Notes under the pieces: generated by a model
Databases searched by the model: none
The model's input: only the letters and a program-made list of their open reading frames with translations
Told to the model about the DNA's origin: nothing
Part shown: positions 30,273 to 30,568 of the stretch, piece after piece
How positions within the stretch are numbered: the first letter of the stretch is position 1
How the letters are laid out: each line of letters starts with the position of its first letter
Made by a program: the position numbers and the translations under genes
Source of the DNA: Sialis fuliginosa
Lineage: Eukaryota; Arthropoda; Insecta; Megaloptera; Sialidae
Assembly: GCA_961205875.1 (NCBI GenBank)
Contig: OY540810.1
Coordinates: 3,038,001-3,102,000, forward strand
DNA length: 64,000 bases
Direction of reading: 5' to 3'

Positions 30273-30329
30273 ATTCAGTGTAATAACCTAATTATACTTA
30301 AACTAAAAATATACATCTTAACCACACTC

Positions 30330-30372
30330 TACAAGTGTTTCGACTTCACAAGAAGTTCTCATCAGGAGCCTA
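30330..30372 (-). ncRNA. Hammerhead ribozyme motif 1
   Basis: Minus strand: CTGATGA (30365-30359); stem II of six pairs, G-C plus ACUUC/GAAGU with one bulged A, closed by a UUGU loop; then GAAACACTTGTA (30341-30330). This supplies G12-A13-A14, a two-pair stem III (AC/GU) with an ACUU loop, and cleavage base H17 = A. Stem I is short (CUC/GAG). Very small stem III hammerheads in repeats are known to act better as dimers, which matches the tandem layout. Confidence 0.7.
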
Positions 30373-30482
30373 ACAGTTCCAGTCAGGAACTTAAGGTATA
30401 TATTTTTAATTTAATTTATAATTCAGTGTAATAACCTAATTATACTTAAACTAAAAATATGTATATACCTTAAACCACTCTA

Positions 30483-30525
30483 TACAAGTGTTTCGACTTC
30501 ACAAGAAATTCTCATCAGGAGCCTA
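30483..30525 (-). ncRNA. Hammerhead ribozyme motif 2
   Basis: The same core as motif 1, 153 bp away: CTGATGA (30518-30512) and GAAACACTTGTA (30494-30483). One stem II base differs (AAUUUC instead of AACUUC), but pairing is kept as a U-G wobble. A two-base insertion (TA) after the cleavage base weakens stem I compared with motif 1. Confidence 0.65.
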
Positions 30526-30568
30526 ACAGTTCCAGTCTGGAAAGGTATATATTTTTAGTTTAAGTAAC

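What the first reader, a model, noticed from the sequence alone, without database searches (positions are those of the whole stretch)
30273..30568. Tandem 148-bp dimer with two hammerhead ribozymes (retrozyme-like)
Seen: two direct repeats, each with a minus-strand hammerhead core (CTGATGA, stem-loop, GAAA, two-pair stem III, cleavage base A). One stem II substitution is absorbed as a wobble pair. Known: small type I hammerheads with tiny stem III occur in Penelope-like elements and in animal retrozymes that make circular RNAs. Inference: transcripts would self-cleave into units of about 148-153 nt and could be circularised. The unit is at the short end for this class.
Basis: partly seen in the sequence, partly recalled or inferred. 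Interest (0 to 1): 0.8.

Follow-up and report, generated by a model that had tools for sequence, protein, structure and literature searches.

The report
Ribozyme-bearing mini Penelope retroelements
The 'dimer' is one old copy of a roughly 160-base mobile element that carries a small hammerhead ribozyme and was later duplicated in place; it belongs to a common class of short Penelope-type retroelements whose copies look as if one RNA was copied into DNA from both sides of the target.

Summary
The repeat and both hammerhead-like cores are real; the retrozyme reading is not supported. Each tandem unit contains host flank plus target duplication (TSD at 30284, 30432, 30602), so the dimer is a local duplication after one insertion. 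The insertion belongs to a dispersed family (P). A second, younger family (E2) lies at 61924-62131, with 729 places matching its ribozyme in the genome. P and E2 share little but the hammerhead letters. All 84 two-piece copies read (38 P, 46 E2) are two head-to-head pieces of one unit: both outer ends are RNA 3' sides, exactly one carries a 'tail' of about 34-38 nt, the inner junction varies, TSDs are about 12 bp. Arrays of intact Penelope-like elements (PLEs) in this genome show one tail each (10 of 10, one end read by eye); 13 of 14 PLE loci have similar cores. Best reading: ORF-less mini-PLEs, inserted by reverse transcription primed from both target strands at two RNA start sites. Ribozyme activity is untested, no circular-RNA signature was seen, and the autonomous partners of P and E2 were not found.

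The parts
30432..30444 (.). TSD, left copy of the original P insertion
   Evidence: TAACC[TC]AATTATA occurs three times in the window
30602..30614 (.). TSD, right copy of the original P insertion (one difference)
30284..30296 (.). third TSD copy, made by the later tandem duplication
30414..30431 (.). host flank beyond the TSD, first copy
   Evidence: same 18 bases at 30266-30283 and 30414-30431: host DNA lies inside the repeat unit
30266..30283 (.). host flank beyond the TSD, second copy
30445..30601 (-). original P-family mini-element insertion, about 157 bp
   Evidence: lies between TSD copies; two inverted pieces of the P unit
30491..30518 (-). hammerhead core CTGATGA..GAAA of the original insertion; stem I out of register
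   Evidence: stems by eye
30338..30365 (-). hammerhead core of the duplicated copy; predicted cut between 30330 and 30329
   Evidence: stems by eye
30546..30566 (-). arm of the original insertion on the tailed side (mate 30443-30463)
   Evidence: inverted repeat I14, 95% complementary
30443..30463 (-). arm of the original insertion on the tailless side
30567..30601 (-). tail outside one arm only (limits approximate)
   Evidence: tail motif at 30579-30596, single in the window
61936..62117 (-). E2-family mini-element
   Evidence: 1225 first-look candidates in the genome
62026..62052 (-). E2 hammerhead core CTGATGA..GAAA
61936..61971 (-). E2 tail (limits approximate)
   Evidence: ends of E2 copies at unit 90-104 or 126-131
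62063..62123 (-). E2 tailless arm (mate 61966-62026; overlaps the TSD at its outer end)
   Evidence: inverted repeat I4, 97% complementary
61924..61937 (.). E2 TSD, one side (14 bp, last bases shared with the element end)
62118..62131 (.). E2 TSD, other side

Best explanation
The finding is one old insertion of an ORF-less mini Penelope-like element (family P, about 160 bp), later tandemly duplicated together with host flank. Shown: in families P and E2 each two-piece copy is made of two head-to-head pieces of one unit, both RNA 3' sides outermost, one piece ending at a first site and the other 34-38 nt further on (the tail), with a copy-specific inner junction and a TSD of about 12 bp; intact PLE arrays in the same genome have the same one-tail ends. 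Inferred: a PLE-type reverse transcriptase/endonuclease cuts both target strands and primes a cDNA from each on RNA of this unit; the two start sites are used once each; one cDNA usually reaches the RNA 5' end just before the hammerhead, the other stops short; the ends are then joined. The hammerhead is a conserved part of the RNA, but its cleavage need not come before reverse transcription.
For: Host flank and TSD inside the repeat. TSD score >=9 in 18 of 20 P loci against 1.8% of 380 mismatched pairs; >=10 in 22 of 32 E2 loci against 1.1% of mismatched pairs. One tail only in 38 of 38 P and 32 of 32 E2 loci, in all 10 two-piece copies among 16 core hits taken in list order, and in 4 further core pairs picked as pairs. 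Arm variants on both arms in 10 of 10 copies, four read by eye. One tail per PLE array in 10 of 10, one end by eye. Hammerhead-like cores in 13 of 14 PLE loci, with the same extra nucleotide before stem II, by eye. PMC11167929 (section 3 read): a purified PLE protein cleaves and extends both strands and uses two RNA start sites that account for the tail.
Against: P and E2 show no convincing sequence match to any PLE held here (one 19-bp match of P, E 0.001-0.002), and the search for E2's parent did not complete. Exceptions: the tailless end lies elsewhere in L011 (P63) and L038 (P82), L076 (74) and L120 (73); 6 of 16 core hits taken in list order show one piece only, of which L117 is a plain single cDNA with a TSD. 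The first P and E2 queries held a tail, so tailless-tailless copies could be under-sampled there. Pfam does not recognise the intact PLE frames as RT or GIY-YIG.
Confidence: 0.7

Rival explanations
1. Retrozyme: the transcript of the dimer self-cleaves into about 150-nt units that are circularised and reverse transcribed.
For: Type I-like hammerhead; tandem units here and in L009; metazoan retrozymes of about 170-400 nt are described (PMC7229834, passages).
Against: Host flank and TSD lie inside the unit; family copies are dispersed and two-piece; no copy read has a tail-to-5'-end junction; long pieces cross the predicted cut site.
Confidence: 0.04
2. Same element class, but the inverted arm is made by self-priming or template switching of a single cDNA, as proposed for rotifer Penelope elements.
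For: PMC3846280 (passages) proposes self-priming and describes palindromes at inverted junctions; L029 has a short foldback at its junction (by eye); P and E2 have short near-palindromes at their usual 5' end (by eye).
Against: The two outer ends differ by the tail in 84 of 84 two-piece copies and 10 of 10 arrays, so neither piece is a simple copy of the other. A switch to a second RNA at the other start site is not excluded.
Confidence: 0.2
3. A MITE-like DNA transposon with terminal inverted repeats that happens to hold the hammerhead.
For: Short, inverted arms, target duplication.
Against: Arm lengths differ from copy to copy (inner ends P66-87 and E2 18-63); one-sided tail; TSD of about 12 bp; same ends as PLE arrays; L117 is a one-piece copy without an inverted arm but with a TSD.
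Confidence: 0.03
4. The element is a mini-PLE, but the hammerhead core is an inactive relic.
For: No Rfam hammerhead match. Extra nucleotide in stem II. Core letters drift about as fast as the rest (P 20/494 against 135/3341; E2 6/413 against 67/2636, p 0.22). The free folds of the P and E2 units do not give the full hammerhead.
Against: The core is nearly all that P and E2 share, and like cores with the same extra nucleotide occur in 13 of 14 PLE loci (by eye). Drift after insertion is expected. In PMC11167929 the PLE ribozyme cleaves only with protein present, and a paper cited in PMC7761336 says in its title that such variants cleave as dimers (reference list only).
Confidence: 0.2

Closest known systems
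Penelope-like elements with inverted pLTRs and an optional tail (Adineta Pen families, PMC3846280; Anolis PAc, PMC11167929)
   Same: Head-to-head inverted ends, 30-40 nt tail on one side, TSD, hammerhead near the RT start region, start sites that account for the tail
   Different: P and E2 have no ORF and are about 160-180 bp; the tail is described there as optional, while here one tail per two-piece insertion holds in every case read; TSDs quoted there are 8-10 bp, here about 12
Minimal dispersed type I hammerheads of metazoan genomes (PMC7761336, passages)
   Same: Small hammerhead with weak stem III, dispersed in non-coding DNA, co-occurring with PLEs
   Different: Here the dispersed motif is placed in a defined unit with ends, TSD, inverted second piece and, for E2, an upstream TATA-like box
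Metazoan non-LTR retrozymes (PMC7229834, passages)
   Same: Short, non-autonomous, AT-rich, type I hammerhead, possible PLE mobilisation
   Different: Not tandem by design; inverted two-piece build; no sign of a circular template in the copies read
Short nonautonomous Penelope elements of heliconiine butterflies (PMC6685494, two passages)
   Same: Short ORF-less Penelope derivatives, abundant
   Different: The passages seen say nothing on hammerheads or end structure
L1 twin priming (recalled)
   Same: Two cDNAs primed from opposite target strands give an inverted insert
   Different: In L1 a minority outcome and the pieces hardly overlap in sequence (recalled); here frequent and the pieces overlap

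Membership tests
Penelope-like element (non-autonomous derivative) | Inverted pLTR-type ends with a 30-40 nt tail on one side | tested here: met
   38 of 38 P, 32 of 32 E2, 14 of 14 further E2 two-piece copies; same ends in 10 PLE arrays of this genome
Penelope-like element (non-autonomous derivative) | Target site duplication | tested here: met
   18 of 20 P and 22 of 32 E2 above the stated scores
Penelope-like element (non-autonomous derivative) | Sequence shared with an autonomous RT/GIY-YIG PLE | tested here: inconclusive
   None convincing in 14 PLE loci; upstream of an E2 unit (L137) a short frame resembles a PLE C-terminus by recall only and does not beat shuffles; deciding search unanswered
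Type I hammerhead ribozyme | Conserved core CUGANGA, GAAA, U16.1, H17 with stems I, II, III | tested here: met
   In the P unit and E2 by scan with one extra nucleotide before stem II; in the window copy at 30338 by eye; the copy at 30491 has stem I out of register
Type I hammerhead ribozyme | Match to Rfam hammerhead covariance models | tested here: not met
   No hammerhead row at E<=10 for P or E2
Type I hammerhead ribozyme | Self-cleavage | not testable with these tools
   Needs in vitro assay
Metazoan retrozyme | Tandem units bounded by hammerhead cleavage sites and made by the element itself | tested here: not met
   Host flank and TSD inside the unit; dispersed two-piece copies
Metazoan retrozyme | Circular RNA intermediate | not testable with these tools
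   No RNA data; no tail-to-5'-end junction in copies read
MITE / TIR DNA transposon | Fixed terminal inverted repeats at both ends | tested here: not met
   Tail outside one arm only; arm lengths vary copy by copy

The most novel reading that the evidence does not exclude
PLE insertion is by design a two-primer, two-start reaction: the enzyme cuts both target strands about 12 bp apart, each strand primes a cDNA, and the two RNA start sites are obligatorily used once each, giving the one-tail head-to-head build from 160-bp minis to 30-kb arrays. The small hammerhead, with its self-complementary loop III (CACGTG in P and E2, AGCGCT or TAGCTA in most PLEs here), serves to pair or position two RNAs for this reaction rather than to free unit-length circles.
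Probability: 0.3. Interest if true: 0.8.

Novelty: new variant of a known kind. Interest (0 to 1): 0.5.

Why it matters
PMC7761336 calls the role of minimal hammerheads in PLEs a mystery and notes that most such motifs are dispersed in non-coding DNA. Here dispersed cores sit inside defined mobile units with ends and TSDs. Many short, young insertions record how PLEs insert (inverted ends, one tail, about 12-bp stagger), so a poorly known retrotransposition pathway becomes testable by counting copies in any genome that has such minis.

Tried and rejected
Retrozyme dimer: rejected for this locus (host flank and TSD within the unit). MITE: rejected (variable arms, one tail). 'Hammerhead cleavage shortens one template': considered because the short piece of P copies never reaches the predicted cut (inner ends P66-87, cut 56/57); not general, since 20 of 32 E2 short pieces cross theirs (inner ends below 50, cut 49/50). 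The MIR475 model match over E2 (58.7 bits, gathering score 70) is read as a palindrome effect. A GIY-YIG family search gave 2 matches from 150 scored candidates: L049 is a broken PLE, L048 does not look like one. Pfam gives no RT or GIY-YIG match for two intact PLE frames; PDB gives only weak retron and group II RT matches for one (E 0.03-0.06); PLE identity rests on similarity to L049, recalled RT and GIY-YIG motifs, and array structure. The frame upstream of the L137 unit does not beat shuffles against PLEs held here. A genome-wide count of the P core was never obtained.

Full report
What is there. The window has a direct repeat at 30262-30563 (TRF period 153) with two minus-strand hammerhead-like cores at 30338-30365 and 30491-30518. 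Rfam gives no hammerhead match. By eye, stem II carries one extra nucleotide after G10.1, and the copy at 30491 has two extra bases before stem I.

The dimer is secondary. The genome (G000, 392 Mb, 20 contigs, unnamed) holds many related copies: 1725 first-look candidates, 40 scored. The copies read are nearly all single insertions with their own flanks. In the window the same 13 bases occur three times (30284-30296, 30432-30444, 30602-30614, the last with one difference): a target duplication on both sides of one insertion, plus one extra. Next to the TSD, 18 bases of host flank occur twice (30266-30283, 30414-30431). So element plus flank were duplicated in place after insertion. The trimer L009 also repeats flank.

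Family P. I aligned 17 copies and split 38 loci (L010-L047; L009 and the window copy left out of these counts) against one 142-nt unit. In that unit the core starts at P21 and the predicted cut is 56/57. Each of the 38 has a long piece that starts at P1-P11 and an inverted short piece whose inner end lies in P66-87. Both pieces have their RNA 3' sides outermost. In 36 of 38 the short piece carries the tail (to about P142) and the long one does not; in 2 of 38 (L027, L028) the reverse. The tailless outer end lies at P102-111 in 36 of 38; exceptions L011 (P63) and L038 (P82). TSD score is 9 or more in 18 of 20 loci, against 1.8% of 380 mismatched pairs; by eye the length is mostly 12 bp. Ten copies carry one of two arm variants and all ten carry it in both arms (six counted by script, four by eye because the gap was placed differently). 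The other arm differences are private to one arm, as expected for later mutations.

Family E2, in the same window. A motif scan found a third core at 62026-62052, inside arms 61966-62026 and 62063-62123, with TSD copies at 61924-61937 and 62118-62131. The genome has 1225 first-look candidates (40 scored) and 729 places that match the 39-nt ribozyme pattern with at most 2 mismatches, against 0 for the reversed pattern. In 32 of 32 loci the build is the same; the tail is on the long piece in 28 and on the short piece in 4. The tailless end lies at 90-104 in 31 of 32 and at 74 in L076. TSD score is 10 or more in 22 of 32, against 1.1% of mismatched pairs. BLASTN between the P and E2 units finds only GAAACACGTGT, its palindromic part, CTGATGA and a 7-base AT stretch.

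Test without tail bias. The first queries contained a tail, so I took core hits: the first 16 loci in list order, then four further close pairs that I picked as pairs. Of the 16, ten are two-piece and all ten have exactly one tail; six show one piece (L117, L119, L125, L126, L131, L132). The four picked pairs also have one tail each. L117 is a complete single cDNA with a 13-bp TSD; L125 and L131 continue upstream of the usual 5' end; the others are cut short or unclear. L120's tailless end is at 73. Among the 100 places listed of 729, 13 close pairs are all in (-,+) order, i.e. head-to-head; none is (+,-); one (+,+,+) triple with 72-bp spacing was not examined.

Where the RNA starts. L125, L130, L131 and L133 show sequence upstream of the usual E2 5' end: a TATAAATA about 30 bases before GTTAGTGTC; L117's cDNA ends at AAGTTAGTGTC. 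This fits a Pol II start just 5' of the hammerhead (inference). L125 and L131 share at least 190 further bases upstream of the unit, so a longer source element exists. In L137 a short frame with one stop precedes it; it reminds me of a PLE C-terminus (recall) but does not beat shuffles against the PLEs held here. The search that would settle this did not complete.

Autonomous PLEs in the same genome. An RT fragment of a broken PLE (L049) finds 125 places among 487 candidates (125 scored), many with open frames near 900 aa, in tandem arrays with a period near 3.56 kb that run head-to-head; at C10, six minus copies then four plus. Self-comparison of L095 and L096 shows the head-to-head centres. 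For 10 arrays I read both outer ends: one at unit 913-918 (687-691 in the second family), the other at 948-949 (725-727), so one tail per array; in L111 the alignment ran on through a TA run and I read that end by eye. Hammerhead-like cores lie in 13 of 14 PLE loci (L083-L096, none in L084), with the same extra nucleotide before stem II and, in 12 of these 13, AGCGCT or TAGCTA after GAAA (by eye).

Mechanism. In PMC11167929 (section 3 read) a purified PLE protein cleaves and extends both target strands, starts at two internal RNA sites that account for the tail, and is predicted to be a dimer; its ribozyme cleaves only with protein present and is not needed for insertion. PMC3846280 (passages) describes inverted pLTRs, an optional 31-bp tail and palindromes, and proposes self-priming. 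The one-tail rule speaks against simple self-priming, because the two pieces end at different RNA sites and neither copies the other. I therefore favour priming from both target strands with each start site used once. Since the long pieces cross the predicted cut, and 20 of 32 E2 short pieces do too, cleavage before reverse transcription is not required. Core residues drift about like the rest (P 20/494 against 135/3341; E2 6/413 against 67/2636, p 0.22); all core residues remain in 24 of 38 P and 26 of 32 E2 copies. The case for function is the sharing of the core by otherwise unlike families.

Literature limits. Paper searches of the open library listed no paper whose title or shown abstract describes a strict one-tail rule or hammerhead mini-PLEs with these ends; I read passages or sections of six papers only. 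Short nonautonomous Penelope elements (PMC6685494, passages) and dispersed minimal hammerheads (PMC7761336, passages) are known. The 2014 paper that first reported hammerheads in PLEs was not held.

Noticed in passing
window 61924-62131: A second, unrelated-looking hammerhead mini-element (E2) with the same two-piece build; became part of the argument.
   Followed up: yes
window 50591-51339 and 40668-41294: Two long inverted repeats (arms 354 and 293 nt, 94% and 90% complementary), both with a 41-nt spacer: probably foldback-type elements of one kind.
   Followed up: no
window 48572-49088: Inverted repeat with 205-nt arms, 97% complementary, 107-nt spacer.
   Followed up: no
window 58163-58377 and 17918-18126: Two copies of an element with similar arms around TCATAGACATAGAGAATGGAC and the same 143-nt spacing.
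   Followed up: no
G000 C3:32444788-32444970: Three E2 ribozyme cores in direct tandem, spaced 72 bp; could be a true ribozyme tandem or local duplication.
   Followed up: no
L130, L133, L136: Two full E2 pieces head-to-head with 57-84 bp between them; in L130 and L133 the middle holds upstream (promoter-side) sequence in inverted order.
   Followed up: partly
G000 C10:984965-1019585, C7:62178-89790 and others: Nearly identical intact-frame PLEs in multi-copy head-to-head tandem arrays, the ends read lying mostly in TA repeats: recent activity.
   Followed up: partly
L137:3381-3731: Open frame that looks like the N-terminal part of a mariner-type transposase (recalled resemblance) near the E2-bearing element.
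   Followed up: no
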